The position numbers were made by a program, and so were the translations under genes. This document shows positions 1 through 59,684 of a stretch of DNA of 60,303 nt, piece after piece; the first letter of the stretch is position 1, and every line of letters begins with the position of its first letter. Below the pieces are notes generated by a model, which saw only the letters and a list, made by a program, of their open reading frames with translations, had not been told where the DNA came from and ran no database searches. Location: NCBI RefSeq assembly GCF_000003605.2, contig NW_003109081.1, forward strand, positions 115,118 through 175,420. Reading direction: 5' to 3'. The DNA is from Saccoglossus kowalevskii (lineage: Eukaryota > Hemichordata > Enteropneusta > Harrimaniidae).

Positions 1-290
1 TCCAATTATCCCGAAATAGTTCCAATTGTGTTAGGGGTAATCTTGTTACACTGTTCAGGGGAGTCTCAACAACCATCCCAAAGTACCGGTTTCTGAGAGT
101 TTTCGCCTTTTGTTTTCACCGTGATAGTTGCCAAGTGGTGAAAAATCCCAGATGTTCGACCAAGAATAATGAGCAGCGCATGGTGTTATAGTACAAAATG
201 AAAAAAAAAACGTTCTTTTTGCACGAGAAGTGTACTGTGGCGTTAGGAAATGTGATGTTACAGTGTGGCTGTACATTTTATTTCTTATAG

Positions 291-1209
291 GCAGCTGCTA
301 TCGAAGAGTTCAAAACCAAAACATGTCCAGCAATTTATGGAGGGTTAGAGAAAATTCTCGTAGCGAACAATGGAGGAGATGGATACTACGTGGGAAATGA
401 GGTATATTTATCGATCACGTCGCCAGAAACTGCAATGTTGTATTTGGTTAAAAATATATAGTATTAAACGACACATTCTATCACATGTCGATACGGACAT
501 GACTGGACTGATTACATTCAAACTGCACACATACATAATATTATATATATGCACATCTATTTGTTTCAAAATCTTATTTTGTTTTAATGAATGTGGTTTT
601 AGTAGCGCCTTATCTCTGACATGGTTTAGCTGATTATGATCAAATTTTATACATGTTTATGTTCCAACTTTATTACTATAAACAAAACTATGTATCACCA
701 ATTTGATAACTAAGAGGGACTGCTTATTTTTAGCTTGTTTAAAAATGGGTTGTGGGAATGTCAACACATCAATATGATACATTGTTAAAAAGTACTTGCT
801 GCATAAAATTGGGAATAACGTTAAGGAATTTAAAAAAATGCTCATAATAAAATACGACAGGTAAATATGTATCATGTCGTATGGCTTTAGTAACTGAAAT
901 TATGATATTATTCAATGGAATTCGGAGCGTAATTAAAGTGGAAACAATATCATGTTACTCGAATTAACATTTTAAACACCAAATATGAACTCAGGAGCAC
1001 ATATCCTATAACTGTAATAACATTGGATGTTCCCTTATTTGCAGGTGACATTAGCAGACACTACGCTTATTATGGCGGAAGACATTACAAAGAGGATGAA
1101 TCCCCAAGTATTAGACAACTATCCAAAACAGAAGGCTCTAACGGAACGGGTCCTAGCATTGCCAAAAATTGCAGATTGGATAAGGAAGAGACCACAGACT
1201 GATCACTAA
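291..1209 (+). CDS. Sigma-class glutathione S-transferase, 3' end only (gene A')
   Basis: These are the last two exons of a GST whose 5' part lies left of the window. The first is 291-401 (acceptor TTATAG, 37 codons, donor GTATAT), the second 1045-1209 (acceptor TTTGCAG, 54 codons plus TAA). They encode the C-terminal helical domain, including the NNGGDGYYVGNE stretch and the ending WIRKRPQTDH typical of sigma GSTs. The family conjugates glutathione to electrophiles or isomerises prostaglandin H2 in the cytosol. The mirror gene on the minus strand (20758-24364) has matching exons. The first of these exons differs from its partner by one residue in 37, the second by about 12 in 54. Bases 1-290 and 402-1044 are intron. 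An AATAAA follows the stop by 66 bases. Confidence 0.9.
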
Positions 1210-1274
1210 TTATTGTAAAGACAGTCTTTCAGGGATTCAAGTATATCATTCATGTATTGTGGCGTTGTCTTGGA

Positions 1275-1280
1275 AATAAA
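1275..1280 (+). terminator. Polyadenylation signal of GST A'
   Basis: AATAAA lies 66 bases after the stop codon of the partial GST. The mirrored gene has the same hexamer 70 bases after its stop, so the signal predates the duplication. Confidence 0.6.
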
Positions 1281-1864
1281 GATCAAAGATACCCAGTCAT
1301 TTACATTCGCAATTATTAAATCGCGACGTTCTTAGTTATAATATTGAATTACACAGTAATACCATATTTGGAGGTTATTCGCGGCAACCTAGAAATACCG
1401 TGCAATATATTTTAGTTTGTTCCGAATAGTCTTTCCAGCATTAATTTTTCTGAAAATATTACACACATTTTCACGCGAGAACAATGTAACGTGCCACAGC
1501 TCAAGTAACGATACATTCGCAGGCCAGAGATGTTGTGTGATCCTGGGAAAAGCAGCATTTATATTTTTCCAAGTGCGTATTTCGAGAAACAAATGCCAAT
1601 ATTGCTTGAGCAATGCGACACGTTATCTCCAGTATTACCTGTGAATGACCTCTTTGTCATATTAGCAACAACATTTCTGTATCAGCACAAACATTGCGTA
1701 ACTGGCCACTAAAGAGAGTAAGAGTTTGAAAAATCATAGCATCCGAAACCCCTGAGAGCACAATGCGCGTGTATAATGAATTATTTCTAAAACTAGCGAA
1801 TGTTAAGCAACTTTTGAGTTCTTGCAAAAACTCAATAAATTTGCAAATAATTTTGAATTATCCA

Positions 1865-1867
1865 TTG
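1865..1867 (-). other. Empty target site of the right-arm MITE
   Basis: Read on the minus strand, the left arm runs ..GCTGGCTG CAA TGGATAATTC... The right arm runs ..TTGGCTG TAA, then a 729-bp element, then TAATGAATAATTC. The left arm therefore keeps the uninterrupted site, with a single trinucleotide where the right arm has a duplicated TAA. Confidence 0.8.
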
Positions 1868-2384
1868 CAGCCAGCACTTTTGCCAGCATGGAGATGGATC
1901 AGCCAACTCTTCTTTAAAAGTAAATCAAGTGAGCTATCTGGGCAATATTAATATGTCTCACGCAAAATCGAATCAACTATTTATTGAAAGGAATATATGT
2001 AAATACATCTGTCTAATATTACCTTGTCCAAATTTACCATTACCACAACTACAGTATTAAGTTCTTGGTAGCAAATTATAACATTTTGCATTCCAGTTTT
2101 GTTTGCAAGCATATTTGAAAGGTTTCAATAGTATTCAAAATACGATTCGTCACTCATTACCCACAAAGGCATATGAGTTCAAGTATTAGAATTACTCACA
2201 AACAGAATGTTGGGATTTACTGATCTGCATGCCAATACTCGTGCTCGTTGCACCGTACAACACATACTTGTTTTAAAAACAAAAAGTCTCATAAAACGAT
2301 GGTCGAAGCCTGTATCACTTATCTCACAATATCGCAGCAGGAACACACAGGGTACTCAGTAGAAATGGTGGTCTCAAACTGTTA

Positions 2385-2985
2385 TCAGGGGGAAAATCTT
2401 CTCCTCTATGGTTCTCCACACATGTCAGGGGGGAATCTCGTCTCGTCTCTATATCTCGTCCCCTTGAGGTGTGGGATCGGGAAAGTCACTTAAACTTTAC
2501 AGATAAATAGACGCACACAACAAGATACGTTTCAACTTTCGTCTTAATCGGTCAGTCGAGCACTGTACAAGACACAGCGCCCTGGGGAAAAGTCCCCAAA
2601 GACTATCGCAAGGCTGACCCAAGACTCTCTCTAGGCTGCATCAAGACTCGCCCCAAGATTCTCCAGGACTGGACTGCCTCTGTCCCTGTGTACTCGCCAA
2701 GACCAACTAAAAACAACTTTATTCATTTTCAAAACATTAACCAATTACAAAGCAGTAAAAAGACTCTAGGGCGTAACCTTCAATCATAAAGCCAATCACA
2801 CCAAGTACTGAACACGTCATATTTTTTGATTAATCGTTCACTACATTAATAATTGCAAATACTGTCAGAAATAGTAGTCCGAATAGCGACGGTTATCTCA
2901 TAATTAGTTCCAAATCACTGAACCGAGTTCCGTCCAGAACATCGCATGGCCTAAACGATGCCAGACATAACACAGTCATTCCATT
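2385..2985 (+). mobile_element. Dispersed element, copy 1 (about 600 bp)
   Basis: This stretch matches the reverse complement of about 55225-55762 over its whole length. Matching blocks include the G-run start near 2385, ACACATGTCA near 2420, the block around CCAACTA..CATTTTCAAAA..TTAACCAATTAC at 2700-2750, GATTAATCGTTCAC at 2828, and GTCCAGA..CATCGCATG..CCTAAACGATG..AGACATAAC at 2930-2972. It has no long open reading frame, so it is non-autonomous or decayed. It is absent from the right arm, but that arm lacks the entire surrounding interval, so insertion after the duplication is likely and not proven. The exact ends are uncertain. Confidence 0.75.
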
Positions 2986-3133
2986 TGTAATCAGCTAATT
3001 AAGTCGATTAACAGATACGCAAAAACAAATTCATCACACTGTCCTCAGTCTGTCCAATAAATGGTCCAGATTCAGGGACACCACCTCGGTTACCATATGA
3101 GCCAAACAGAATGTGGTCTTGCCAGCAGCTATC

Positions 3134-3440
3134 TCACGTAGGCAACTCAGGGTTTAAGGTAATATGGCAAAACATAAAATAAAGGATGCTGTCAACCACC
3201 TTTATGATAGTTATCACACGCCAATGCACACAGTTTATTCCTCTGATTCCGTGCACACTTCTATTTGCAGGGTTTGAGGTAATATGACAAAAACATAAAA
3301 TAAAGGATGCTGACAACCTGTCAACCACCTTTATAACAGTTATCACACGGCAATGCACACAGTATCTTCCTCTGATTCCAGGCACACTTCTATTTGCATG
3401 GTTTGAGGTAATATGAGAAAATAAATAAAAAAAGGATGCT
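3134..3440 (-). repeat. 129-bp tandem repeat, left-arm array (about 2.4 units)
   Basis: The core GGTTTGAGGTAATATG followed by an AAAATAAAGGATGCT block recurs near 3145, 3280 and 3405. It is the reverse complement of the units at 19186-19350 and 26453-27025. The array lies about 650 bases upstream of the sulfotransferase membrane exon, as in the other two copies. It also carries small indels, so no long frame survives here. Confidence 0.85.
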
Positions 3441-4080
3441 TACATAGAGCCCGCATGACGACTAGAAGCACGGAAAAAATAAGAACATAAAGCGATTAAC
3501 ATAAGTATCAGTTTCTGGGCATAGATGAATCATTGTAACGTAAAATTATTACTGTTTTCGTGCCGTAACCATCAAATGATACATCCACACAGTTTTCCGT
3601 ACACGTCCTTTTGCACACATGCCGCTAAATACCAGACAAACTAATCATGAAACTGAAGAATCTTTAAAAATTGGACTGTCATTTTGTAAAAGTCATTTCC
3701 CATGTACATGATTTATTCCATTCTAGTTGCATGTTTTGTTTTCCTATATTCTTCTTTCTGTATTCTTCTGTCCGGAACGTCGATGAATTTCGGGTATTAT
3801 TGTCTTTTGTTTATTATCCTATACTAACATGAGAAAACACGTTTAGCGTATTATTACATACAAAATGTACAGGCTGTTACGTGAGATACCATCGCGCATG
3901 CGCCCATTCATTACCTATAGTATCATCATATAATACACACATACATCTTTTGGTTCCTCATTCGATTCAGGTTTAGGGTGTTACTGGCAAAATGCAAACC
4001 AGGTAATGTAGTATTTTAATGGTGACAACTCTTTGCTGGCGTTCCGTTCTGTTGCATAATTGGTGATAATTATTGAAAAG

Positions 4081-7000
4081 ATGAAGATGTCGAGTTGGAA
4101 CAATTGTTAAACACAAGTTATTGTATTGTATGTAGGACAACTAAACGATGTATTGCGGTCACTACTATATCAATTATTTTGCTGTATATGGGAGTGTATA
4201 TGATATTGAATCACAAATCTGGTTACACAGGCCGACATGTATTGGAGATTACAAAGAACTCATGGAGGTATGTAACAGCACAGTCACTCTCCTAGTAGAG
4301 TGACTGTGGTAACAGCGACAGTCGTTTTTCGTAACTGATGGCAGAAAATAATCTCGCTGCAAGCAATCAATTATGTATGATATTTAAGAAACGTAATACT
4401 ACTATACAAAGAAACAAATGCTATGGTGGGCATTTTATTAAGCAGCGACATTTCTACTAATAGCATTATGTGTCGTATTTCGATTGCATTATAGCGGTTC
4501 CAGGAATTATATTCGGACAGTCATTTATCAAAATCGGCTGTAGCTTCGCAAAATACTTGTGTGCTCTGTTGCCACATGTTTGACTAAGTTAGTTGTGCAG
4601 CAAACAATTTGCCGAATAATGTGTAGCCCTGGTTTATTTCAGTGAGCGGTATCATTTTAAAGCGGAGGGGTCGTCTCCCGCGCAATGGCACACTATGGCA
4701 CCTGACGCATGCGCAGATGGGATTCTCCCGCTTTAATACAGGGCGAACCAACTCTACTCGGTGTTCCACCATATATTTTATCGAGTATCTGAAAGCGCAG
4801 AAATCGACGCTTAGAGCGACGGTACGGTAGTATTCAGTTCTACATTTGTGATCGGTATAATCTGCCGTCATTTTTACTTATCGTGAGGGCATCGAAGCAG
4901 ATTAAAAATAGCGGTATAAACGGACATTATACTGAACATGAAGCAGTTTCCTAACTGGACTTGCAGGCTGTCAAATGTGGTATGAGGTATCTGACAAATG
5001 CTCTACATGCAACAAATTATATAAACATAGTAAAACGGGTACGAGAGGGTGTTCAAAGTGTAGTAATACGTTTCCGATGTCAAATATATACTGAACTTGC
5101 ACTATGAAGCGAGAGAGGTCAACCACTCTAGTGTTTTAGATGGCGCATCAAACGATTCGAATTCTTTAAAGAAGGATAAGGCATACACACGAACGAAGTC
5201 GGCCATGTACTCGCCGACACTGCTGATAGATAAGTGCGGATTACACAAAGAAACCCTATTCGATATGTGTGCAGCAACGCAGACCAATTCACTGTCCCAA
5301 ATCAATACCCCTGAATTCAACACGACAGACGTGTTTGCATATCGATTCAACAAGTCTGCCATTATCGAAGCCGTTACTGAATACACCGGTATATCGTTTT
5401 AAACCATGACCAAGACGTCACACTATTGTATTATTCAGTTATGAAACCACCTGCAAAGATTTTCAGAACGGAGAGTATTTTCTATTGAACATTTTGATCA
5501 TGGCCGTTCATCCATGACGCCTGTTTTTGATCTGAAAGTTAAATTGCAACCTTCTTTTTCTAGTGGCAATACTCGGGACACAATACCGGTCCCCTTAGAT
5601 CGTTCAAGCTATGAACTGGTATCTCATATGTCTGAAATAAGTGGGTGAGTATTATTGAATGAAAAAAGCTCTTGGTAATACATGTATGTTTCAAGTTTTC
5701 TGCTTGTCACTCAGTCGTTCGTACACCACCACACACATACAGATACCCTTTTGTCTTTATAATGCTGACAAGACGATGAAGAAATGTGTAGAGCCAGTAA
5801 ATATTGAGGTTGATTTCTGGCTTACCGGAATTTTATATACATATTTATGTGAATTTCTATGAATAATGAAGTTCTACTGTTTCATCTATATTATGTAACT
5901 AACCAGAATTTTCAGCGGGGGTTTTCAGATTGCGATCAAAATTTATGCCAGTTATGTGGCTGTCGACGCCCATCAACGTGTATAAGCTGGATGAGCTGTT
6001 AGTATTTCAAAATAGTCCCCAAACCTGTTATTCGATATTGATTCAAATGACCCATTATAAGCAGTTATGTTTATTCTTGGCAATCGTGGGAGTAAGCAGC
6101 GAGACAGTTGAAAACGAGTCAATTGTCTGACATCATTGTCGCCAGTGTTTGCGTATCGTACGCAATTGTAGGATTTTCGATCACAGCTGCCAATATAAAC
6201 AAAAAATAAACATGTACAGAAAATAAATATGAATATTAGCTGATTGCATGTAAAGTTCTAGCCTATTTACAACATTCGGTCGATTTTCACGGTAAAAAAA
6301 GCTCTTAGCCTTCGTTGTTGGCGCTATAACAATTTAGGCATCCGAGTTGCATAGGGGGAACAGTGCAATCTGCCATGGGTTTTTGTGTACTGAATTCGGA
6401 AAGTGGTAAAAATATCAAACATGGCTGACTGATTGTCTGATTTTTTTTATGTGCATTTTCATTTCATTTCGATTTTTAGTGGCGAATCGTCCGAAAACAT
6501 AGCATATTTTGTCCTCTCGAATATTTTCTACAATATAACGCAACTATTAATATTGTACTTGGTCATTGGTAGTCGGTGCTTCCGCTGTACTGTCTGAGTG
6601 CATACTTTGAGATATTCTCGTAATAACCTTTTAGTATACACCATAGGAATGCCGAAATCCAAAATCAGCGAAATTCTTTGTGTAGAGTCCCTGGTGGCAG
6701 CCATGTTTTTTTTATTATTAGATGACGCTTACGCGCGTAATCATTCCATATTTGGAACCCGCATTTCCTAATATGATGAAAATACCCCGTAAAAGGCTGT
6801 AACTTATGGCCTTACGGTGACAGATGTATAATACTAATATACATGTCTTTTAAGGTCTATGATTCGCGGTATTAGTTAAATGCTCAATGTAATCCGTCTT
6901 AGAGATCGAATAGTAGTTTTAATAACGGCAATGTTATGTGAGTCAATTTGAATTTGAGTAGCGATGCTTCTGATTCTTGTTTTTTTCAACAGAAATACCT

Positions 7001-8001
7001 TCCCTCATGACATTGTGATTACCAAAGCGGAGAAGAAGAGACATCAGCTTCCAGTTACTCCGTACCCAATTGTTAACATAACTGCGTTTGTACCGAACTT
7101 TTTCACTAAACTCGATCCAAAAAATGCAAGGAGGTACCTGAATAACGACACCATAACTGTATTTGTGCATCACAATAAAGCCGGGGGTACTTACATGCGA
7201 CGATGTCTCGACGAAACAAATAAAGTGATGCAAGACAAACGCACCTACAATTTATTATCATGGGGTCATATTTTTCCATGGTATGCTCAACGGAAATTAA
7301 GAAATGGATCTCCCCGTAATGAAAGATACATCGTTGGCGAAGCTACATTTGGAATATGTGAAACTTATCGAGGGAACAAATCTTGTTCATATTTAACGAT
7401 GCTGAGGGAGCCGTATGATCGCATTTTGTCTCTCTATGACCATTGTCATAATAAACCAGATGACTGGATATGTTCCCCGTGGGACATCGATAACATAACC
7501 GTCAACGAATTGGCAATATATACTGGAAGCTTTTTTTTCCAACAACTTTTGTTCAACATTGATATCTGTAACACGGAAAACACAACAAAGGCATTCAAAG
7601 CGTATTCACAAATAGACAAAGTGGTTAACCCGGAACAAACCCGTTGTGTGCATAAAATAAAGGCCTATCTCAATTACTACTTAGATATGAAGCAGAGAAA
7701 TGAACTTCTACAGTACGTTCTTGATAATTTAGAGAATTGGTTTACTGTCATCGGTATGCAAGATGAATATTCTCTGAGTTTGAAGATGTTGGAGAAGGCA
7801 TATGGCTTGCCAATTTACAAAACTTGCAACGGCAATGTCACTATGAAACATGCAAATCGAGCGCCTATAAGAGTCGAATATATGAAAAGTCTTAAAGCTG
7901 ACCCTCGTGTTTACGAAGCTCTGTATTACGATATACGCATTTTCGAAGAGGCGCGGAGAATTTTTGACGAACAAAAAACAAAATTGTTAGGCTCATATTA
8001 G
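4081..8001 (+). CDS. Golgi-type membrane sulfotransferase, left-arm copy (two exons recognised)
   Basis: Exon 4081-4267 encodes a short acidic N-terminus, a transmembrane signal anchor (CIAVTTISIILLYMGVYMIL) and the start of a stem. It ends in phase 2 (tgg ag, donor GTATGT). Exon 6993-8001, after the acceptor TTTTTTTCAACAG, needs exactly two bases to complete its first codon, so the two exons splice in frame. The catalytic exon holds VHHNKAGGT (5'-phosphosulfate-binding loop) and LREPYDRILSLY (3'-phosphate-binding element with Arg and Ser), plus NIT and NDT glycosylation sites. The family moves sulfate from PAPS to carbohydrate in the Golgi lumen; the acceptor cannot be told. The membrane frame has no ATG before the anchor and meets a TGA at 4074, so the start is unresolved: an upstream exon is likely, and 4081 is a guess. 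AATAAA is at 8091. Confidence 0.82.
5067..5402 (+). CDS. Unrecognised open frame of about 112 codons inside the sulfotransferase intron
   Basis: An open frame runs from just after a stop at 5064 to TAA at 5400. It contains phrases such as DGASNDSNS, CGLHKETLFDM and EAVTEYTGISF. It has no ATG near its start and I see no clear acceptor. Reverse-strand relatives lie at 17101-17441 and 24856-25189. Among the three, one indel is a whole six bases (in frame), and many changes keep the reading frame, which hints at a coding past. The other two copies are frameshifted near their ends. I do not recognise the family. It could be a remnant exon of a different gene carried by the duplication. Confidence 0.35.
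   Translation, partial: YVSDVKYILNLHYEAREVNHSSVLDGASNDSNSLKKDKAYTRTKSAMYSPTLLIDKCGLHKETLFDMCAATQTNSLSQINTPEFNTTDVFAYRFNKSAIIEAVTEYTGISF
6585..6830 (+). repeat. Dispersed repeat family R2, copy in the sulfotransferase intron
   Basis: It starts near TACTGTCTGAGTGCATACTT, runs through GGAATGCC..GAAATCCAAAAT, GAGTCC..GGTGGCAG.CATGTTT and GACGCTTACGCGCGTAATCAT, and ends near CTTACGGTGACA. Related pieces lie at 44570-44815 (with an inverted part) and 50618-50715 (head only). The right-arm intron passes through the corresponding place (about 15860-15960) without it, so it is specific to the left arm. Confidence 0.75.
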
Positions 8002-8090
8002 AATTCTCATTAAAATTGATGATACTTAATTTTGCATTATGATAATTTATTTCTTTACTCTTGTTTTGATAGATAGATTGATTTTAATTT

Positions 8091-8096
8091 AATAAA
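8091..8096 (+). terminator. Polyadenylation signal of the left sulfotransferase
   Basis: AATAAA lies 90 bases after the stop codon. The same TTTAATTTAATAAAGTAG context is mirrored at 14609-14614. Confidence 0.6.
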
Positions 8097-9716
8097 GTAG
8101 CTGGAATTTGGCGACTGACAATTAAAAAACTTTACCACACAAGCATACACATATTTTATTGTAATGAAAATTGTGAATTTGAGTTCTTGATTAGACGATA
8201 AGAGGCTGTAAATAAATTGGTCATGTTTTAGAAATGGAATAGGTGTATATTTCATTTGACATGTATTTTACTTGACCTGACATCAAAATATTCTGGCTTA
8301 ATACAGTACTCAAATATACAAAAATAAACGATAATGATATGTTTGGTAAACTGTTTTGGCCTACCTGAAACCAACTTAAATAAGCCGTTATAACCTGACT
8401 ATTACGCACCATTGGAAACTTAATATTTCTTTCGTCAGATTACATTACATTAATAGACAATAATCTGCTAGTTAGAGATTATTTTATGTTTCATTCATTT
8501 TGGGAATCATATTGCTCCAACTCCAAAATGAATAAAATATGGAATTATATGTTACATTTTGTGGAAATGAATTGCGCGGCTTACAACATTATAATATACT
8601 GTTGATTCTAAGCAAAGGTTTATAGATGATATTGAATTATAAACAATGATTAAAGTCTATAACACAGCGAAGAAAGAAAGTAAAATTCAATTTCTAACTG
8701 TTAACCTTAACTTAAGTCATTAATTTTCTTAACTTACCTAATGGCTGTGAAGTTTTGAATGATTTGTCATAATTTAAATGCCGAATGAATGCACACCAGA
8801 TTTTATGCTAGTGTCGTGGCATATATCAAATTTGTATTGGTTTTTCGTCGTATATATGTGTGACAGTGACAGCAACGCAGTGACCATCAAGTTATATTGG
8901 TACCCATTACATCAGTACAGTTATGCATGGCGTCTATTTATCAACTAGATCTGGGTTGGAGCTTTTTGGCAGTTACCTCGACATAATATATTGTAAAAGA
9001 ATAATAAAAATTAAGCAATACAAAGATAATATAGAGACAGGAAGTTAAGCCGTTTTTTATATGCAGTATGCTACTCATTAAAAATAACATTCAACAATAA
9101 AAATATAATTTCATTGGTATAGAAATATTGAAACACACATGCATACATTACCTTTCTTCGTTGAACATCTCGACAATTGTGAATGAAATAAATGAGATAA
9201 AATTTCAAGAAGGAAGAAGTATTACTGTTTCATTTTCTACTTTGGGAACTTAGAATAATATATATATTTAGACAACTATCAAGAAATTATTAAATAACTG
9301 TAAAGTGATTATCTAAAGCACCGTTAGTATTAGATTAGGTGTGTGATCACTATTATTAATCAGTGTAAACATGTTTTGATGAAAATATGAATGAAAGTCA
9401 CTCGTAGACATACATAACTAAATGTTTTTTATGTCTGACATCAAGCATTAAAAACTATCATCTGATACAAGCTTACGTTGGTCAGGCAACCAGGCTAACT
9501 GTGTTGCCAATAGTCCATGTATATGTGAATCATGAAGGTGTATTGTTGCATATTGAATACAACTGTTTTGATCAATTATACTGATAATACGCCCTAAGAA
9601 TAACAACTGACCTCAACAGTATTGCGTTCATGAGTCTTCAGTACTACGGCCATGATAAACATTGCACTGAGCATTGCGTTCTTGTAAATAGAGAACGCCA
9701 GAATAAAATCTGAAAT

Positions 9717-9738
9717 ATTCATATATATATATATGAAT
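9717..9738. repeat. Perfect AT palindrome at the inner edge of the left arm
   Basis: ATTC, then seven AT dinucleotides, then GAAT make a 22-bp perfect palindrome exactly where homology to the right arm stops (CCAGAATAAAATCTGAAAT is the last shared block). Confidence 0.8.
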
Positions 9739-10394
9739 GTCTTCATTATGACATTGGTTGCATGTCCCAGGATGCAATATTGTTTCAGTTTATATATAGC
9801 CATCCCTTGCCCAATGTCTTCATAGCTTCATAGTAGTACAGGTTTCTCTCTCCTATCTGCAACAGTTATGCATGTTGATGAGGTCAGACGACCTCACTCC
9901 ATGAACCCCAAACCCTGTGACCAATACATATGAAAATGAATACATAAGATCAATCTGACAACACACCACGCGTAATTACACAATTTTAATTTTCACAGAC
10001 TCGAAAATGGCAGACAAACCACTTTAGTGATTAAAATTGATATTTCTCGTAAAGTCTGTTGCTATAGTTTTTATATACAAAATATCAAGTTGATTGGTTA
10101 AAGCACTCATGAGAAACAAATATTTGGTAATTTTTGTCAAAAATCAAAGATGATGTCAAAAACTCGTGATTGACTTATTTTTCTCGTAAAATACCTTGAC
10201 CATGCATGCCCAATATCAAGTTAATCGGTAAAAACAAATACACTAGTTTTTTTTGCAACTTGTGATAAAAATCTAAGATGGTGGCAATATAATTCAATGA
10301 ATGCAACAACTAGAATCGACTTATGCTTTAGACCTGCAGCATCAAGCGTATGGTTTACAAATATTACACATAAATGTGCCCGCAATAGTTAAGG

Positions 10395-12256: not shown

Positions 12257-14608
12257 TAGTGAAGTAGTTCGTGACACAAGAAGGGTATCGCGTAGTGTGA
12301 AATTTCAGAAATGCAGTGGACCCACTGATGACTGAAGTCACTTTCATGATTATATAGTCTAGATCAGATTCTTTACTGTGATCTACTTACAGAATGGGGA
12401 ACACTTTTGTGTGGGTAATATACATGATTTACAGTTGAATTAACTTCAGCAAGTCAATGCTCTCATCTCTGAACCAACAACGTCGCGCTTTGCTTAGAAT
12501 CACTCTTCTGTGAGTACTTAACTCTTTCTAAAGTTATAGTGTTTGCTTCACTTGACAAATTTGTATTTATTGTTCGATATTACTATTCATTGTTTGTTTT
12601 GTTTGTCTTTTTATATCTACTACGGTGCAAGTAATTGTCGTTCTAAAATGTTTTAACCTTTTTATATATATGATCAGATCAGAAAAACAACTAATCATGC
12701 AGCAAAGACTGCTCAAAATATGTCAGAAATTACTTGACTACAATCACTGCAACAACACAACCAGCACTAGAATTTATTCTTGAAGCTCAGATGGAAACGA
12801 AGTAATCAACTCATGATTGCAAAAAACGAGACTGCAACAACAATAAAACAGTCAAGTGTTTTGTTGATGCAACTATGCATAGTGTCTCTTTTCTCACACA
12901 GAATATCGCATCAGAAAATTCGCCTTATGTCGAGTTGATTTCAACCTCAGTCCAAATATATAAATCAGTAGGTAATGTCAATTTTACTTAGTGTTTCTAA
13001 AGAAGATGACGTTTTCTCCCAAAGATACATGATAACTATCTCATTCCCATGATTATTTTAGATTTTATTCTGGCTTTCTCTATTTACAAGAACGTAATGT
13101 GCAGAGTTCATCATAACCGTAGTTCACTCATAACGCAATATTGTTGAAGTCAGTTGTTGTTCTTGGGCGCATTATCACATTCATGATTAACATGGTTGCC
13201 TGTTCAACGTAATCTTGTATCAGATGATAGTTTGTTAATGTTTTCTCAATACGTGCTTTACACATATACTCATATGTTCCATTGAATCAGTGGTCTACAC
13301 TAATTAATACATGTGTCCATCAGGTGTGCTGTATCACAGATACCATACAATCATATTGGATATATACACATGTACATATAACCCTCCAAACCCTGGTTTA
13401 GTGAAAATATCAAAATGGGTTTTCAACCATACAGTATCTGCATATATTTCGTGTTATTATATTGTTTGTGTCATTCACATCACATCAACTAGGAGAGACA
13501 GATTTCATCCATAGATACCCAGTTTTAAGGTATAATTGTAATTAATACTGTGACTCGCCATCACAGAATATAGTGCCCTAGGAATAACAATTGTAAAATC
13601 TGAGTAAAATACTTCTTTACAGTGAATTGATTTTAGCAATTTGCAGTGGTTTGATGTCAGACATTGTAAACATATAGTTATGTATGTCTACGGGTGACTT
13701 TCATTCATATTTGCATCAAAACATGTTTACACTGATTAATAATAGTGATGACACACCTAATCTAATACTAACTGTGCTTTAGATAATCACTTTACCGTTA
13801 TTTAATAATTTCTTGATAGTTGTCTAAATATATATTTTATTCTAAGTTCCCAAAGTGGAAAATGAAACAGTAATACTTCTTCCTTCTTGAAATTTTATCT
13901 CATTTATTTCATTCCCAATTACCGAGATGTTAAACTTCGCTGGTACATTTTTGCAAACTGTGAAAAAGTAAGTAATGTATGCATGTGTATATCTATATTT
14001 CTTTCCCAATGAAATTATATTTTCATTGTTGTATGTTATTTTTAATGAGTGGCATCTTGTATATAACAAACGGCTTTACTTGGCTACATTTCTGTCCCTA
14101 TATTGTCTTTTGCTCAATATTTTATTATTCTTTTATAATACACTATGTCAAGGTAACTGCCAAAAAACTCCAACCCAGATCAAGTTGATTTATAAATAGA
14201 CGCCATGCATAAATGTACTGATGTAATGAACTTTTCAGGGTAGCAATATAACTTGATGGTCACTGTGTTGCTGTCACTGCCACACATACATCCAACGAAA
14301 AACCAATACAAATAGCATAAAACCTTTTGTGCATTCATTCGGCATTTTAATTATGACAAATCATTCAAAACTTGACAACCATTATGTACGCGAAAAGAAT
14401 TTATTAATGACTTAAATTGCGATTAACAATGCGCTAAAGAAACTACTGAATTGAATTTTACTTTCTTTCTTCATTGTCTAAATATAATATAATAATATAA
14501 TTCCCAAAATGTCAAGATGAAACATAAAATAATCTGTAACTAGAAGATTATTGTCTATTGGTGTAATGTAATCTGAAATATGTGTATGTGTCGCTAAGTT
14601 CAAGCTAC

Positions 14609-14614
14609 TTTATT
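14609..14614 (-). terminator. Polyadenylation signal of the right sulfotransferase
   Basis: AATAAA on the minus strand, 90 bases past the stop codon at 14704, mirrors the signal at 8091. Confidence 0.6.
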
Positions 14615-14703
14615 AAATTAAAATCAATCTATCCATCAAAGCAGGAGTGAAAGAATAAATTATCGTAATGCTAAACTAAGTATCACCATTCTTAATGAGA
14701 ATT

Positions 14704-17700
14704 CTAATATGATTCTAAAAATTTAGCTTTTTGTTCGGCAAAAATTCTCCGAGCCTCTTCGAAAATGCGTATATCGTAATACAGAGCTTCGTAAACACGA
14801 GGGTCAGCTTTAAGACTTTTCATATATTCGACTCTTATAGACGCTCGATTTGCATGTTTCAAGGTGACATTGCCGTTGCATGTTTTGTAAATTGGCAAGC
14901 CATATGCCTTCTCCAACATCTTCAAACTCAGAGAATATTCATCTTGCATACCGATGACAGTAAACCAATTCTCTAAATTATCAAGAACGTATTGTAGAAG
15001 TTCATTTCTCTGCTTCATATCTAAGTAGTAATTGAGATAGGCCTTTATTTTATGCACACAACGGGTTTGATCCGGGTTAACCACTTTGTCTATTTGTGAA
15101 TACGCTTTGAATGCCTTTGTTGTGTTTTCCGTGTCGCAGATATCAATGTTGAACAAAAGTTGTTGGAAAAAAAAGCTTCCAGTATATATTGCCAATTCGT
15201 TGACGGTTATGTTATCAATGTCCCACGGGGAACATATCCAGTCATCTGATTTATGATGACAATGGTCATAGAGAGACAAAATGCGATCATACGGCTCCCT
15301 CAGTATCGTTAAATATGAACAAGATTTGTTTCCTCGATAAGTTTCACATATCCCAAATGTAGCTTCGCCAACGATGTATCTGTCATTACTTGGAGATCCG
15401 TTTCTTAATTTCCGTTGAGCATACCAAGGAAAAATATGACCCCATGATAATAAATTGTAGGTGCGTTTGTCTTGCATCACTTTATTTGTTTCGTCGAGAC
15501 ATCGTCGCATATAAGTACCTCCGGCTTTATTGTGATGCACAAATACAGTTATGGTGTCGTTATTCAGGTACCTCCTTGCATTTTTTGAATCGAGTTTAGT
15601 GAAAAAGTTCGGTACAAACGCAGTTATGTTAACAATTGGGTACGGAGTAACTGGAAGCTGATGTCTTTTCTTCCCCCTTTTGGTAATCGCAATGTAATGA
15701 GGGAAAGTATTTCTGTTGAAAAAACAACAACAATTAGAACTCAATTGTTAAAAACTACTGAACGATACTAAATGCACTATATAAACTAATGAATATTATG
15801 ATTTGCAGTCATGGAAATTAATATGTTATGAAATGCTCGGCTCGAAGTTTATACGTTTTCAAAATATACATGTACTCCGCGATTTTGAAATGCAATGCGT
15901 TCGATTACCAAGGAGTAAGTACAATGTTATTTATTTGCAATATTATTAGTTGCGTTCTATTGTAGAAAATATTCGAGAGGATAATTTACAAGAATATACT
16001 ATGTTCTCAGAAGATTCGCCACTAAAAATCGAAATAGAATAAAAATGTACATGAAAAAAAATATGAATGCAATCACAATCAGGCAGCCATGTTTGATATT
16101 TTTACCACTTTCCGAATTCAGTACTTAAACGCTCACGGCAGATTGCACTATCCCCCTATGCAACTCGGACGCCTAATTATTATAGCGCCAACCACGAAGG
16201 CTAAGAGAGCTTTTTCCATGTTTTTTTACTGTGAACATCGACCGAATATTGTAAATAGGCTAGAACTTTAATTTTTGTTCGAGTTTGCATGCAATCTGCT
16301 AATATTCATGTTTATTTTCTGTACATGTATATCTTTCGTTCATAATTGCAGCTGTGATCGAAAATCCTACAGTTGCGTACGATACGCAAACACTGGCGGC
16401 AATGATGTCAGACAATTGACTCGTTTTCAACTGTCTCACTGCTTACTTCCTCACGATTGCCAAGAATAAACTTAATTACTGCTTATAATGGGTCATCCAG
16501 CGTATATACACGTTGATGAGCGTCGACAGCCACATAACTGGCATAATTTTTGATCGCCATCTGAAAACCCCCGCCGAAAATACTGGTTAGTTACATAATA
16601 TAAATTAAACACTAGAACTTTCACATAAATTTGTATATAAAATTCCGCTGAGCCAGAAATTAGTCTCAATATTTACTGGCTCGATACACATACTTTAACG
16701 TCTTGTTATCATTGCAAATACACAAGTGTGTATGTGGGCGGATGGTTTACGAACGACTGAGTGACAAGCAGAAAACTTGAAACATACATGTATTACCAAG
16801 AGCTACGTTTTTCATTTCAGTAATACTCACCCACTTATTTCCGATTTTCGAGATACCAGTTTATGACTTGAACGATCCAAGGGGAGCGGTATCGAGTCCC
16901 GGGTATCTCCACTAGAAAAAGAAGGTTGCGCTTTAATTTTCAGATCAAAAACAGACGTCATGGATGAACAGCCATGGACGAAATGTGCAGTAGAAAATAC
17001 AAGAAGTACTGGAGTGGTTTCCAGAATCTCTCCGTTTTGAAAATCTGTGCAGGTGGTTTTATAACTGAATAATACAATAGTGTGACGTCTTGATCATGGT
17101 TTAAAACGATATACCGGTATATTCAGTGACGGCTTCGATAATGGCAGACTTGTTTAACTGATACGCGAACACTTCTGTCGTGTTGAAATTAGGGGTTTGA
17201 TTTGGGACAGTAAATTGATTTGCGTTGCTACAAACATATCGAATAGGGTTTGTTTGTGTAATCCGCACTTATCTATCAGCAGTGTCAACTTCGGCGAGTA
17301 CATGGCCGATTTCGTTTGTGAGTACTCCTTATCCTTCATCAGAGAATTCGAATCGTTTGACGCGCCATCCAAAATACTAGAGTGGTTGACCTCTCTCGAT
17401 TCATAGTGCAAGTTCAGTATACATTTGACATCGAAATCGTATCACTACACTTTGAACACCCTCTCGTACCCGTTTTACTATGTTTTTTTCAATTTGTTGT
17501 ATGTAGCGCATCTGACAGATATCTCGTCAAAAAGCAGACAGCCTACAAGTACATTTAAGACAGTGCTTAAATATAATGTCAGTTTATTTCGCTATTATTT
17601 TTTATCTGCTTCGACAAGCGACAAGTAAAAATGACGGCAGAATATACCGATCACAAATGTATAACTGAAAACTACCGTCGCTCTAAGCGTCGATCTCTGC

Positions 17701-18544
17701 GCTTTCAGATACTCGATAAAATATATGGTGGAACACCGAGTAGAGTTGGTTCGCCGTGTATTAAAGCGGGAGAGTCGCCACCTGCACATGCGTCAGTGTC
17801 AGTGTTTGCAAACAAGCATCTATCCATGAGCCTTTGCGTTTTAGCATGCGTTGTTATCATCGCTTGGGATTCAATTCCCGCGCGTGCGCAGATGGCGACC
17901 CTGCCACTTCGCTTTAAAATGACCATAGATACCGATCACTGAAATGAGCAAGGGCTACACATTATTTGGCAAATTGTTCGTAGCACACCTAACTTACTGT
18001 AAGTATTATATATGGATATTGAATACATAGGTCAGATAATATTGCAATTCGCTGTGCGACTAGACAAAGCGTCTGTCAATCAGGTGGCGCCAGAGCACAC
18101 TACAAGTATTTTGCGAAGCTGCAACCCATTTAGATAAATGGCTGAATTAATTCCTAGGACCGCTATAATGAAATTGACATACGACACGTAATGCTATTTG
18201 TAGAAATGTCGCTGCTGTTATTAATAAAATGCCCACCATAGCGTTTGTTTCTTTGTATAGTATTATTACGTTTCCTAAATATCACAAATAATTAAGTGCT
18301 TGCAGCGAGATGATTTTCTGCCATCAGTTATGCAAAACGACTATTGTTGTTACATACCTCCATGAGGTTTTTGTGATCTCCAATACATGTCGGCCTGTGT
18401 AACCTGATTTGTAACTCAATATCATATACACTCCCATACATAGCAAAATAATTGATATAGTAGTGACCGCAATACATCGTTTAGTTGTCCTACATACAAT
18501 ACAATAACTTGTGTTTAACAATTGTTCCAACTCAACATCTTCAT
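14704..18544 (-). CDS. Golgi-type membrane sulfotransferase, right-arm copy (two exons recognised)
   Basis: Mirror of the gene at 4081-8001. The membrane-anchor exon is 18544-18358 (donor GTATGT, phase 2). The catalytic exon is 15712-14704 (acceptor TTTTTTCAACAG). Both PAPS motifs are intact (VHHNKAGGT; LREPYDRILSLY). The catalytic exon of 335 residues plus stop differs from the left copy at roughly 20 positions, for example LTI for LTM before LREP, DDW preceded by HKS for NKP, and the C-terminal tail. It has no frameshift, so both copies look functional. As in the left copy, no ATG precedes the anchor in frame, so the 5' end is provisional. The upstream side (18545-19350) holds the 129-bp repeat. 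The intron (15713-18357) holds a broken copy of the 112-codon frame. Confidence 0.82.
17101..17441 (-). pseudogene. Frameshifted copy of the intronic 112-codon frame
   Basis: Same content as 5067-5402 (LHYESREVNHSS, DGASNDSNS, CGLHKQTLFDM). Two bases are missing at the AATCAA..CCCC stretch near 17190, which shifts the frame. After the shift the original frame continues to the same ending, EAVTEYTGISF and stop. It carries a six-base in-frame insertion (two codons) relative to the left copy. Confidence 0.55.
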
Positions 18545-19185
18545 CCTTTCAATAATTATCACCAATTATGTAATATAAGAACAGAACGTCAGCAGATTGT
18601 TGTCATCATTAAAATACTACATTACCTGGTTTGCATTTTGCCAGTAACACAAAGGAATTAAACCTGAATCAAACGAGCAACCCGATGATGTCAGTGTGTT
18701 CTATATGATGATAGTACAGGTAATGACTGGTGTGCATGCGCGATGGTATCTCACGTAACAACCTGTACATTTTGTATGTAATAATACGCTAAACGTGTTT
18801 TCTCATGTTAGTATAGGATAATAAAACAAAAGACAATAATACCCGAAATTCATCGACGTTCCGGACAGAAGAATAGAGAAAGAAGAATATAGAAAATCAA
18901 AACATGCAACTAGACTAGAATAAATCATGTACAGGGGAAATGACTTTTACAAAATGACAGTCCTATTTTTAAAGATTCTTCAGTTTCATGATCAGTTTGT
19001 CTGGTATTTAGCGGCATGTGTGCAAAGAGACGTGTACGAACTGTACGGATGTATTATTTGATGGTTACGGCACGAAAACAGTAATAATTTTACGTTACAA
19101 TGATTCATCTATGGACAGGAAACTGATGTTAACCGCCTTATGTTCTTATATTTTCCGTGCTTTTAGTCGCCATGCGTGCTCTATG

Positions 19186-19350
19186 TCAGCATCCTTTATT
19201 TTATGTTTTTGTCATATTACCTCAAACCCTGCAAATAGAAGTATGAATGGAATCATGGGAAGAAACTGTGTGCATTGCCGTGTGATAACTGTCATCAAGG
19301 TGATTGACAGGTTGTCAGCATCCTTTATTTTATGTTTTTATCATATTACA
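19186..19350 (+). repeat. 129-bp tandem repeat, right-arm array (about 1.3 units)
   Basis: TCAGCATCCTTTATTTTATG occurs twice, 129 bases apart, with TCATATTACCTCAAACCCTG and GTGTGCATTGCCGTGTGATA between. The array breaks into CATGCTGGCAAA where the left arm has a further 1.25 kb, so a deletion ended it. Confidence 0.85.
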
Positions 19351-19374
19351 TGCTGGCAAATGTGTTGGCTGTAA

Positions 19375-20103
19375 GGCCACACTGATTTAATTTTATGGAT
19401 GACATTCTCTGGTGAGCCCAAATCTAATGCGAGAGGGCGAAAAAAAAACTGCCAAAAAAATGCTTCTTTGACATTCAAACTACAGCTTTTAAAGTGACAC
19501 TTCAGATAGACTAAGTGTAGACACAAACGCTCTAGAACTACTTCAACTATGTAACAAATTATAAGAGGCGCGATATTTAAAAAAAAAAACACCAACACAA
19601 ATTTGGATGCAGAAAATTATGTACATGTATCTTCATGAAAATGTGTCATATGATCAAAATATTACTGACTGTGTGTGCAAGCAAATTATCCAAATCAGAA
19701 AATGAAATAAAAAATAATAAGAAACTTTTCTTCATCTCAAAAGCGGACAAAGCAACCGAACTGACTTGTCGCCTGACTGATATTTAGGCCACCATACGCC
19801 TCCACTCCTCTCCCATTCCTCTGGACTTTTATGCTCACGTATTTTGGTGGCGTGGTCGCCATGTTGGAATTCCCGGCAACGCAATACGCATGTACAGAAG
19901 ATCATTTACGACAAAATTGGCACGTTTTGAGGTTGTCCAAAACGAGTTTTACGACAAGCCGGCGCTTTGCGACAATATGAGTCGGCAAGTTCTGGACAGA
20001 AAACCAATCTGTGGAGACTCGTCGTCGGAGATTTACTTTGTTGAGAACAGGCGAAAACTAATGCGCGCGCGGATGTCATCCATAAAATTAAGTCGGTGTG
20101 GCC
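19375..20103. mobile_element. 729-bp MITE with TAA target-site duplication (PIF/Harbinger-like)
   Basis: The element begins GGCCACACTGATTTAATTTT at 19375 and ends with the inverted form at 20073-20103 (AATTAAGTCGGTGTGGCC). The terminal inverted repeats are about 31 bp with two mismatches. It is flanked by TAA at 19372-19374 and 20104-20106. The inside (long A tracts, no open frame for a transposase) is non-coding, so it depends on an enzyme encoded elsewhere. TWA target duplications are typical of the PIF/Harbinger superfamily; that assignment is inference. The left arm has the uninterrupted site at 1865-1867. Confidence 0.88.
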
Positions 20104-20473
20104 TAATGAATAATTCAAAATTAATCAGAACAAATTCAATTTTATCCAGCTTTTGCAAGAACTTAAGAAAGTTGCTTAACATTCGCTAGTTTTAGAAATA
20201 ATTCATTACACATGCGCATTATGCTCCCCGTCGCTCTCAGGGGTTTCGGTTGCTATGATTTTTCAAACTCTTCCTCTCTTTAGTGGTCAGTTACGCAATG
20301 TTTGTGCTGATACAGAAATGTAGCCAATATGATAAAGAGGTCATTTACGGGTAATGCTGGAGATAATGTGTCGCATTGCTCGAAGCAATATTGAAATTTG
20401 TTTCTCGAGATACGCACTTGAAAAAATATAAATACTGCTTTCCCCACTCAACATCTCTGGCATTGCCCGCGAA

Positions 20474-20476
<3 letters not shown>

Positions 20477-20522
<46 letters not shown>
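20477..20522. repeat. (AT)n microsatellite
   Basis: Twenty-three AT dinucleotides in the right arm. The left arm lacks the expansion at the matching place near 1500. Confidence 0.95.
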
Positions 20523-20525
<3 letters not shown>

Positions 20526-20682
20526 ATATTTTCAGTTAAAATGAATGCTGTAAAGACTATTTGGGACAAACTAAAATCTATCGCACGGTATTTCTAGGTT
20601 GCCGCGAATAACCTCCAAATATGGTATTACTGTGTAATTCAATAATAATTGCGAATGCAAATAACCGGGTATCTTTTTAATC

Positions 20683-20688
20683 TTTATT
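20683..20688 (-). terminator. Polyadenylation signal of GST A
   Basis: AATAAA on the minus strand, 70 bases past the stop codon at 20758. Confidence 0.6.
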
Positions 20689-20757
20689 TCCGAGACAACG
20701 CCATGTTCCATGAATGATATACTGGAATCCCTGAAAGACTGCCTAACTTAACAATAA

Positions 20758-23700
20758 TTAGCTATCTGTCTGTGGTCTTTTCTTTATCCACTCTGCAATT
20801 GTTGGCAATGCTAGAACTCGTTCTTTTAGGGCCTTCTGTTTTGGATAGCTGTCTAATACTTGGGGATTCAACGTCTTTGTAATGTCTTCCGTCATAACAA
20901 GCATAATGTCTGCTAATGTCACCTGCAAATGAGAGAACATCCAATCTTATTACAGGATATGTGCTCCTGAATTCATATTTAGTGTTTAAAATGTTAATCC
21001 GGGCAACATGATAATGCAATTACGCTTCGAATTTGATTGAATAATATCAAAGTTTCAGTTACTAAACCCTTATGACATGACATATTTACCTGTCGTATTT
21101 TATTATGAGCATTTTTTAAATGTCTTAATGTTATTCTTACTTATGCCGCAATAACTTTTTAACAATATATCATAATGATGTACTGACTTCCCACAGCCCA
21201 TTTTTAAACAAGCCATGCATGGCACAGTCCCTGTTAGTTATCAAATGTAAGATACATGTACATAGTTTTGTTTATAGTAATAAAGTTGGAACATAAACAT
21301 GCTAGACATATGGATCCATAAGCTGATGTTTGATTATGATTTTTAACATTGAAATGGCATTTGTCCATATTGAGAGATATTGTTCTGGAACAGAATTGAT
21401 TAAAACAAAATTGCCACCGGTCGACCATCTTCAATCAGATAGTCAAACTAAACATACCTGTATATATATGACATAATGTATAATTAATATATAAAATTTA
21501 AACATAATCAGCCAAACCATGTCAGGGATATGGCCGTAGAGCCACATTCATTAAAACGAAATGGCCACCAGTCAGCAATTTTGAATTCAATATGATAATA
21601 TAAAACAAAATGACGTGCATCAGGGACCCATAATGTCCAATGTATGTACCAAGTTTCAACAAAATTCCTCCATAAAAGACCGAGATCCGGTACTGGAATG
21701 CCAGAAATGCTTGATTTTGCTGATTTTTATATATAATATTATGTATGATGTATGTGTGAAGTTTGAATGTAATCAGTCCAGTCATGGGCGCACGTTAATA
21801 CATAAGTCCCCGTTATCGGACTTGCGTCAGAACAGATAATTTTAACACGATACAACATGGCAGTTTCTGGCGACGTGATCGATAAATTTACCTCATTTCC
21901 CACGTAGTATCCATCTCCTCCATTGTTGGCAACGAGAATTTTCTCCAACCCTCCATAAATTGCTGGACATGTTTTGGTTTTGAACTCTTCGACAGCAGCT
22001 GCCTATAAGAAATACAATGTACAGCCACACTGTAACATCACGTTCTTGCTTTGTTGGTGTTCTTGAGATCAATGGATGAATATATAAACAAGAATGTGTG
22101 TAACTCAGTCATGTCCAATGTTTCCCAAAATGTGTATGGATCATTTGAACAGTAAAGCCTCTGTGATTATTTCATATCAATAAATCCTAATTATATTCAT
22201 CTAGAAAATTACTTATCAGCGCGTTTCCACGTGTTCTTTCCTTGTACACGTTGATATCTTCCTTCTCAAAATACAACTACACGTATATTATTTTTACCAC
22301 ATTTGTGGGTAGTATAATTGAAATGAAGGACTTCGTACTGTCATAATATTGCATGACAACAGGGCTAGAATAAAGACGCCCATTTTTGCGTTCATCCCGT
22401 CTGACAATTGTATGTCACGAACCACAATATCATCGGGCATTCACTTATTACGGTCATATAATTGGAATGAGTTATACTTTCTTGTTACCTATGCGTTTCC
22501 TGCCGATGTACATTATTAAACATCTATATTACGTCAGCTATTCTATTTAATACTATACAGTTTTTAACCTTATCACTGATATCCACAGCAAATAGTACGT
22601 TAACTAGTCTTAACATAAGAAAAGTAACAGTATTAGTTAAATCAAGAGGGTCACTACCTTCGCGTCTTCATCTGCTGCATAATACCATTTAATTGCCAAT
22701 TTGACTAAATCTCCAAAGGCATCAACAATCATGTCAACTTTGGCTTTCTCCAGGTTATTCTTTCCAGCAAATCCGTACTCGTTGGCCAAGTAACGGGCAA
22801 TGGCGTTTGACTGGGCCAACATTACTCCGTCCACTTCTAAACAAGGAACCGTGCCAAATGGAAACTCTATTGCACAGAAAATAATAAAAAAACATTTCCT
22901 ATATAAAGTTTGTGTGCTTTCAAGATTTCTACAATACACAATCAAGATACGCAGTATAAAACTGAAGCTGGTATATAGTCCGAGAACCACAAACGAGTCT
23001 GGCAAATGAGCCCGCCCTCTTGTGGTCAGACGGAAGTTGCCACTGGTGTAGTATTAATTCCTTTTTCTGGTTTCAAGCAAACGCCAGCATTTACAAAAAA
23101 CAGATATTTACTTGGTGACCGGCATTCGGCTTGCACTTGAAACACTTAATCGTCGTGATGGAAAGAGCAGTCAATAGTTAAAAACCCAAACCCAAAATGA
23201 AAACTTGCTGCATATAATCAGACTTTTCAATTTTCTACTGATTTTTTTTTCCAGCAGTTTTAACAATATCACTATGATTTTGCTTGAGAGATTACGGTTA
23301 TGGCATATCAATAATATGGCCATGTGATATGTTAGTATTATCTCGTCCGCTTACAACTCTGAAGCTGTCACTGCTGTCATGTATCCAATCAAATATGATG
23401 CGTGTGTAATAAACATCTGTGAAGATAAAAATAAAATAATTGGGCACACGCACCTCCGAGTCGGTCCCACGTTCCAATGATATGTTATTGTTACCGGTAG
23501 TTTGTTATGGGGTGAGATTAGCGCCAAAATTATATATTATGACATTAAAACACTAATGGCGGACAAAATCCACAATATTGATAAAATAATGAAAAAATAA
23601 CGGTATAATAATTACACAATAATACTTTACAGAACACTTTAGAATATGTAATTGAATAGTTATTATGTAAATTGGATGATCATTATGCAAGAATTATAAT

Positions 23701-24364
23701 CAAAAGCGTATTAGGTCTAGGCATTGTCAAAGAGCATCTATTGTAAAACAGGTCTTTTTAGCTAGCATGTTATTTTAGCTAATTTGTAATTTCGCTAATT
23801 CAAGATGTCGCTAATTTAAAATAACCTATATTCTCACAATGAGAGTGTTGACACTTTAGCTAAATTAAGATTTAGTTAATTCATGCATGGAGTCAAATTC
23901 GCTAAAATATCATGTAGCTATTTAAACATGTTTTACAGTATGTACCAAGACACCAAGTTTCATAGAAATGGGACAATTACTTCTCGCACTTTCGGTAGAA
24001 AAAGCGGTAATTTTTTTTATACAAAGACTCCAATTGTTTGCTTTACACAAAGGTCGCCTGCAGTTATCTAAAGCGGGAATATACAACTTGAATTGGGGAG
24101 GGGGAGGGTGAGGGTTAGGCTTATGGGGGTACAAATGGAACTCCAAAATTTAAACTCAAATGAGGAATTCCAGTTCAATAAAGATTATTTATATATTATT
24201 GTAAGGTCAAACAGAGGTCACTCACTTCCCGTTGCTTTGACTGCTGGCCATTCTTCTTGCGTGTATCTGATGTCTTCGTATTCGACGCCGGCTAAAGCGA
24301 ATAGTACTCTGATTGGCTCGCCAAAACCTCGACTGTTAAAATAATGTAATTTGTAGGAAGGCAT
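20758..24364 (-). CDS. Sigma-class glutathione S-transferase A, complete, four exons
   Basis: Exons are 24364-24226 (ATG), 22866-22658, 22002-21892 and 20922-20758 (stop); all have GT..AG borders and phases 1, 0, 0. The product is 207 residues, the usual sigma GST length. The thioredoxin-like N-domain shows MPSYKLHYFNSRG with catalytic Tyr8, EEWP with Trp39, PFGTVPCLEVDG and [10 protein letters not shown] (glutathione contact). The helical C-domain follows and ends WIKKRPQTDS. At positions 14-15 it has Phe-Gly (RGFGEP) where B and C have Arg-Ala. Unlike B, C and D, the segment across NEYGFAGKNN is continuous, so one intron is missing. Soluble glutathione transferase or prostaglandin-isomerase-like activity is the family role. 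The introns (22867-24225, 22003-22657, 20923-21891) hold no gene I recognise. Confidence 0.93.
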
Positions 24365-24831: not shown

Positions 24832-24855
24832 ATAGTGTGACGTCTTAATCATGGT

Positions 24856-30690: not shown

Positions 30691-38490
<7,800 letters not shown>

Positions 38491-41308: not shown

Positions 41309-46532
<5,224 letters not shown>

Positions 46533-59679: not shown

Positions 59680-59684
59680 AAATG

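What the first reader, a model, noticed from the sequence alone, without database searches (positions are those of the whole stretch)
1..24364. Large inverted duplication carrying a linked sulfotransferase and GST pair
At least 9.7 kb on the left is mirrored on the right around a 3.3-kb spacer. Both sulfotransferase catalytic exons stay open with about 20 residue differences, so this is an old enough duplication to collect several arm-specific insertions while keeping both genes. Such a structure can also form a hairpin and may promote rearrangement.
Basis: seen in the sequence. Interest (0 to 1): 0.7.

Follow-up and report, generated by a model that had tools for sequence, protein, structure and literature searches.

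The report
Old inverted gene-segment duplication in animal
A roughly 9-kb piece of what is probably an animal chromosome, carrying a sulfotransferase-like gene and at least part of a glutathione-transferase gene, was copied backwards next to itself long ago, an ordinary way for gene clusters to grow.

Summary
The inverted duplication is real: left 249-9722 matches right 22044-13049 on the opposite strand around a 3,326-bp spacer. In well-aligned blocks noncoding divergence is about 0.11; synonymous divergence of the sulfotransferase-like exon is about 0.08. The arms are thus old, of roughly one age, and not kept identical. Both sulfotransferase-like exons are open and constrained (pN/pS about 0.3, P = 0.001). 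The right arm carries a private 729-bp MITE with TAA target duplication; the left has the empty site. The 'GST pair' is half visible: the right side has a complete sigma-type GST gene, the left only exons 4-5, because homology stops at 249. Around it lie three more intact sigma-type GST genes and an orphan exon. The spacer holds an older sulfotransferase-like relic. Best reading: an ordinary local inverted segmental duplication; its spacer fits fold-back or template-switch formation. A hairpin role is unsupported. An assembly join is unlikely but needs reads; the genome search did not complete. 'Sulfotransferase' rests on a sub-threshold Pfam match. New member of a known kind, low interest.

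The parts
249..9722 (+). left arm of the inverted duplication, as visible in the window
   Evidence: collinear minus-strand matches to 22044-13049
13049..22044 (-). right arm of the inverted duplication
9723..13048 (.). 3,326-bp spacer, not duplicated within the window
   Evidence: only short repeats and a sulfotransferase-like relic match elsewhere in the window
6993..8001 (+). sulfotransferase-like exon, left copy (acceptor ...TTTTCAACAG, stop TAG)
   Evidence: open frame; Pfam Sulfotransfer_2 below cut-off
14704..15712 (-). sulfotransferase-like exon, right copy, stop TAG
   Evidence: open frame; 18 of 335 residues differ from the left copy
11990..12127 (-). relic of an older sulfotransferase-like copy in the spacer, on the strand of the right copy
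   Evidence: 138 bp, 106 identical to the left and 105 to the right copy
291..401 (+). left-arm GST (A') exon 4
1045..1209 (+). left-arm GST (A') exon 5 with stop TAA
20758..24364 (-). GST gene A: 24364-24226, 22866-22658 (exons 2 and 3 without an intron), 22002-21892, 20922-20758; 207 aa; its 3' half lies in the right arm, its 5' half beyond the visible arm end
   Evidence: (which stops one base short of the stop codon)
32337..38490 (+). GST gene B, five exons, 207 aa
41318..46532 (+). GST gene C, five exons, 207 aa
   Evidence: (one base short of the stop codon)
49766..53635 (-). GST gene D, five exons, 206 aa
57583..57681 (-). orphan GST exon 5 (E); nearest to that of gene D
19375..20103 (.). 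right-arm-only MITE, about 31-bp terminal inverted repeats, TAA on both sides (19372-19374, 20104-20106); the left arm has the uninterrupted site, reading TTG at 1865-1867
3148..5429 (-). repeat element with 129-bp tandem units, left-arm copy
17074..19349 (+). same element, right-arm copy (one end missing)
24829..27186 (+). third copy of the element, outside the arms
9717..9738 (.). 22-bp perfect A+T-rich palindrome across the inner edge of the left arm; the longest in the window apart from pure (AT)n runs

Best explanation
A chromosome segment holding a sulfotransferase-like gene and at least the 3' part of a sigma-type GST gene was duplicated next to itself in inverted orientation, leaving a 3.3-kb unduplicated spacer. 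Since then the arms have drifted apart at roughly one rate (about 0.1 substitutions per site) and gained private insertions and deletions, while the sulfotransferase-like exon pair stayed under purifying selection. Shown here: structure, divergence, selection on that exon, private indels, the surrounding GST cluster. Inferred: that the host is an animal, that it was one event, and that the event was a fold-back or template-switch repair event, since a single-copy spacer of a few kb between inverted copies is what fold-back leaves in human inverted duplications (PMC3907307, passages seen). I give about 0.5 to that route and about 0.3 to tandem duplication followed by inversion. The confidence below is for a genuine old inverted segmental duplication, whichever route formed it.
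For: Collinear inverted chain over about 9 kb. Noncoding JC divergence 0.107 outside and 0.093 inside the shared repeat element, in the 125 of 159 fifty-column blocks with at least 80% identity. Sulfotransferase-like exon: 16.5 synonymous changes over 205 sites and 19.5 nonsynonymous over 800, Fisher P = 0.001 on rounded counts. Right-arm MITE with TAA duplication and an uninterrupted site in the left arm. The repeat element sits at the same place in both arms, so it most simply predates the duplication. An older relic in the spacer, equally far from both copies (106 and 105 of 138), and four GST genes plus fragments show that the locus has duplicated more than once. Gene A, intact, runs across the outer edge of the right arm.
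Against: No reads or depth were available and the genome search did not complete (13 calls). Divergence is not even: noncoding mismatches vary more between 100-column stretches than under permutation (variance 15.1 against 8.4, P = 0.002), and the longest identical run of retained columns is 113 against a mean of 67 (P = 0.0055; gaps and dropped blocks are bridged in that count). That leaves room for small conversion tracts or uneven constraint. GST exons 4+5 look older (dS 0.14-0.16), but on 61 synonymous sites. The inner junction is too eroded to read microhomology. The spacer could also have grown by later insertion.
Confidence: 0.83

Rival explanations
1. Assembly artefact: two divergent haplotypes of one locus joined head to head.
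For: No read data, and the assembly could not be searched (13 unanswered calls). Invertebrate haplotypes can differ by several percent (recalled).
Against: About 10% noncoding divergence, many indels and a MITE gained in one arm are much for alleles. An intact GST gene spans the outer edge of the right arm. The spacer shows no inverted repeat of its own at E 1e-3.
Confidence: 0.08
2. Two-step origin: the segment was first duplicated in tandem and one copy was later inverted.
For: The relic in the spacer lies on the right copy's strand, as in a tandem array. GST genes and fragments lie in both orientations: A' +, A -, B +, C +, D -, E -.
Against: It needs an extra event. I did not test for inversion boundaries, and the left outer end lies at or beyond the window's edge.
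Confidence: 0.3
3. The inverted pair is kept as a structure, by arm-to-arm gene conversion or selection, as proposed for Caenorhabditis inverted gene pairs (PMC1803023).
For: Mild clustering of identical stretches. The element copies R and T are closest over one part of the element, as after conversion. Some inverted pairs in that paper also have arms of only about 82-83% identity.
Against: Arms about 10% diverged in noncoding DNA, with synonymous sites of the exon at a similar level; several of the nematode cases have arms above 95% identical.
Confidence: 0.05

Closest known systems
Adjacent inverted gene duplicates of C. elegans
   Same: newborn duplicates there are often adjacent and inverted, and often partial (PMC2728529, Background section read, other passages)
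   Different: here the visible span is about 9 kb against a median of 1.4 kb quoted for C. elegans, and the pair is not newborn (dS 0.08)
Human inverted duplications with a single-copy (disomic) spacer, formed by fold-back
   Same: two inverted copies around an unduplicated spacer; human spacers have a median of 3,428 bp (range 766-70,466) over 21 sequenced junctions (PMC3907307, passages seen)
   Different: the human cases seen in the passages are megabase-sized and tied to terminal deletions, translocations or rings; this one is about 9 kb and old, with no readable junction microhomology
Long inverted repeats of Caenorhabditis gene pairs thought to be actively maintained
   Same: inverted paralogous genes with shared intergenic DNA (PMC1803023, abstract and passages)
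   Different: those spacers are short (126 and 414 bp in two examples) and several arms exceed 95% identity; here 3.3 kb and about 90%
Sigma-class GST gene cluster
   Same: intact sigma-like GST genes side by side; PDB sequence matches of gene A include sigma GSTs and hematopoietic prostaglandin D synthases
   Different: gene A lacks intron 2, which B, C and D have

Membership tests
Inverted segmental duplication | two long collinear copies on opposite strands | tested here: met
Inverted segmental duplication | copies are distinct loci, not alleles | tested here: inconclusive
   divergence and private indels favour paralogues; no reads, no depth, own assembly not searchable
Fold-back inverted duplication | single-copy spacer between inverted copies | tested here: met
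   within the window only: spacer 9723-13048 has no arm-scale repeat
Fold-back inverted duplication | inverted microhomology at the spacer/arm junction | tested here: inconclusive
   inner edges eroded; a 22-bp palindrome spans the left edge, suggestive only
Conversion-maintained inverted repeat | arms near identical, well below neutral divergence | tested here: not met
   noncoding divergence 0.107, exon dS about 0.08; mild clustering of identity remains
Sulfotransfer_2 (PF03567) | score above the curated cut-off of 22 bits | tested here: not met
   16.0, 16.4 and 16.7 bits, E 0.013-0.008, 28 residues with REPYDRILSLYDH; NCBIfam none; PDB best E 0.61, unrelated; PHROGs best E 0.015, a phage 'ATPase' family
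Sulfotransfer_2 (PF03567) | 5' PAPS-binding loop and 3' phosphate-binding motif | tested here: inconclusive
   HHNKAGGTYMRR and REPYDRILSLY read by eye in the frame; motif knowledge recalled; fold prediction failed (pLDDT 33)
Sigma-class GST | GST_N and GST_C domains, about 200 aa, N-terminal catalytic Tyr | tested here: met
   four models of 206-207 aa; GST_N and GST_C_3 above cut-off in 4 of 4; Tyr in YKLxYFN seen in sequence, its role recalled; class by sequence similarity only
Harbinger-type MITE | terminal inverted repeats and 3-bp TWA target duplication | tested here: met
   inverted ends 30 of 32 bp alike, TAA on both sides, uninterrupted site in the left arm; the type name is recalled and no autonomous partner was sought

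The most novel reading that the evidence does not exclude
The locus could be a hot spot where copies of one repeat element, in inverted and direct orientation, repeatedly drive inverted duplication and local conversion and so spread the GST cluster in alternating orientation. The third element copy T is closer to the right-arm copy than the two arm copies are to each other over one part of the element, but not over the other (private differences left/right/third 80/23/40 in 1,243 columns against 15/16/17 in 401; Fisher P = 0.004; register in the 129-bp tandem units is uncertain).
Probability: 0.12. Interest if true: 0.35.

Novelty: new member of a known kind. Interest (0 to 1): 0.2.

Why it matters
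It is a readable example of how a gene cluster grows by inverted duplication and then decays around constrained exons. It adds a case, not a principle. Practically, it corrects the finding's outer ends and shows that the GST half of the pair is not yet established on the left.

Tried and rejected
Hairpin or cruciform function: rejected for lack of evidence (3.3-kb spacer, about 10% divergence, longest perfect run 110 bp). Gene conversion to explain the 95.2% identity of the exon block against about 81% in flanking BLAST blocks: not needed, since the 81% counts gaps; substitution divergence of aligned noncoding blocks (0.107) is near the exon's synonymous divergence (0.08). Upstream exon of the sulfotransferase-like gene: a scan for an ATG exon with a hydrophobic stretch and a phase-matching donor, upstream in each arm, found none, so the gene model lacks its 5' part. 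Relatives of the sulfotransferase-like protein: 8 pattern matches in viral contigs and 26 in prokaryote genome contigs, none confirmed by tblastn. Single-sequence fold prediction: pLDDT 33, discarded; no fold search was made. Rfam at gathering thresholds: 0 matches. Organism: not identified; 'animal' is inferred from the spliced sigma-type GST genes. Rows dropped: one search prints only matches of 100 bp or more; one search left out 34 of 159 blocks below 80% identity, so its divergence figures are lower bounds. Papers: four searches gave listings; three papers were opened in part (PMC2728529, PMC3907307, PMC1803023), none read whole.
Full report
What was checked. A self-comparison of the 60,303-bp window shows one dominant inverted repeat: left 249-9722 against right 22044-13049, a chain of collinear minus-strand matches around a spacer of 3,326 bp. 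A global alignment of the arms has 6604 identical of 7912 gap-free columns, poorly aligned stretches included. 1,896 16-mers of the left side recur in the reverse-complemented right side, against 0 or 1 in five mononucleotide shuffles. The outer limits 1 and 24364 are not: no match was found between 1-248 and the right arm, nor between 22045-24829 and the left arm.

Age and selection. In the 125 of 159 fifty-column blocks with at least 80% identity, noncoding divergence is 0.107 (JC) outside and 0.093 inside the repeat element that both arms share. The sulfotransferase-like exon has dS about 0.08 and dN about 0.023-0.024, with 18 residue differences in 335; the relative excess of synonymous change is significant (P = 0.001). 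The first eight residues of the open frame differ entirely and lie before a TTTTCAACAG splice acceptor, so they are probably intron. GST exons 4+5 give dS 0.14-0.16 and dN about 0.07, not significant (P = 0.064). Synonymous and noncoding divergence are of one size, so the high identity of the exon needs no gene conversion. Against complete uniformity, mismatches are somewhat clustered (P = 0.002 for variance, 0.0055 for the longest run).

Private changes. The right arm carries a 729-bp element at 19375-20103 with about 31-bp inverted ends and TAA on both sides; the left arm is uninterrupted there (TTG at 1865-1867). The right arm lacks about 1.3 kb that the left has next to this place, including one end of the repeat element, part of which the third copy at 24829-27186 keeps; this looks like a right-arm deletion. 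The left arm has about 280 bp extra after the sulfotransferase-like exon, and the right about 400 bp extra near the spacer. These are marks of two long-separated copies. They make a false head-to-head join of haplotypes unlikely but do not exclude it; no read data were available and the assembly search did not answer in 13 tries.

Genes. The GST is one of a cluster. Four gene models of 206-207 aa can be spliced: A (-), B (+), C (+), D (-), with GST_N and GST_C_3 above Pfam cut-offs in 4 of 4. A left copy A' (exons 4-5) and an orphan exon 5 (E) add two fragments. Pairwise identities of A-D are 53-65%, and A' groups with A (98/96 support) in a five-row tree of the last two exons, so the A/A' split is far younger than the rest of the cluster. 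Gene A lacks intron 2, which B, C and D have. The sulfotransferase name is less sure: Pfam Sulfotransfer_2 scores 16.0-16.7 bits against a cut-off of 22 over 28 residues; PDB, NCBIfam and PHROGs gave nothing that supports it, and the fold prediction was useless. The motifs HHNKAGGTYMRR and REPYDRILSLY fit the family as I recall it. A decayed relic of the same gene lies in the spacer (12127-11990, minus strand), with 106 and 105 of 138 bases identical to the two copies, so it is older than the duplication.

How it arose. Two inverted copies around a few kb of single-copy DNA are what fold-back repair leaves in human inverted duplications (spacer median 3,428 bp over 21 junctions; PMC3907307, passages seen), and newborn C. 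elegans duplicates are often adjacent, inverted and partial (PMC2728529, Background section). I rate a single fold-back or template-switch event at about 0.5 and tandem duplication plus inversion at about 0.3. The junction is too eroded to decide. A 22-bp perfect palindrome lies across the inner edge of the left arm and is the longest in the window apart from pure (AT)n runs; it was noticed after the fact and is weak evidence. The kind of inverted repeat proposed to be maintained in Caenorhabditis (PMC1803023, abstract and passages) is not matched: several of those arms exceed 95% identity with short spacers, though some there are as low as 82-83%.

Side result. The element shared by the arms has a third copy (T) outside. 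Over R 18067-19348, T and the right-arm copy are closest (private differences left/right/third 80/23/40 in 1,243 columns); over R 17074-17485 all three are about equally distant (15/16/17 in 401); Fisher P = 0.004. Part of T may have been copied from, or converted with, the right-arm copy after the duplication, or the parts have different histories; the register within the tandem units is uncertain.

Verdict. The hairpin suggestion is unsupported, the left GST gene is unproved, and reads are needed to close the artefact question.

Noticed in passing
20758-24364, 32337-38490, 41318-46532, 49766-53635, 57583-57681: Cluster of four intact sigma-type GST genes in mixed orientation plus an orphan exon 5; gene A lacks intron 2, which the other three have.
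   Followed up: yes
24829-27186: Third copy of a repeat element with 129-bp tandem units; mosaic relation to the right-arm copy.
   Followed up: partly
54144-54572: Frame with a weak DEAD-box helicase match (E 6.6e-5, 23.1 bits, cut-off 26), in a 2-kb stretch of higher G+C (0.439).
   Followed up: partly
59672-60121: Reverse transcriptase fragment (RVT_1, E 4.1e-10), probably of a LINE-type element.
   Followed up: no
2411-2981 and 55235-55731: Two copies of another interspersed repeat in opposite orientation, one in the part of the left arm that the right arm lacks.
   Followed up: no
30309-30648: Array of about 17 copies of a 20-bp unit.
   Followed up: no
10398-10882 and 27963-28607: A repeat shared in direct orientation by the spacer and the region beyond the third element copy, 78-85% identity in pieces.
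   Followed up: no
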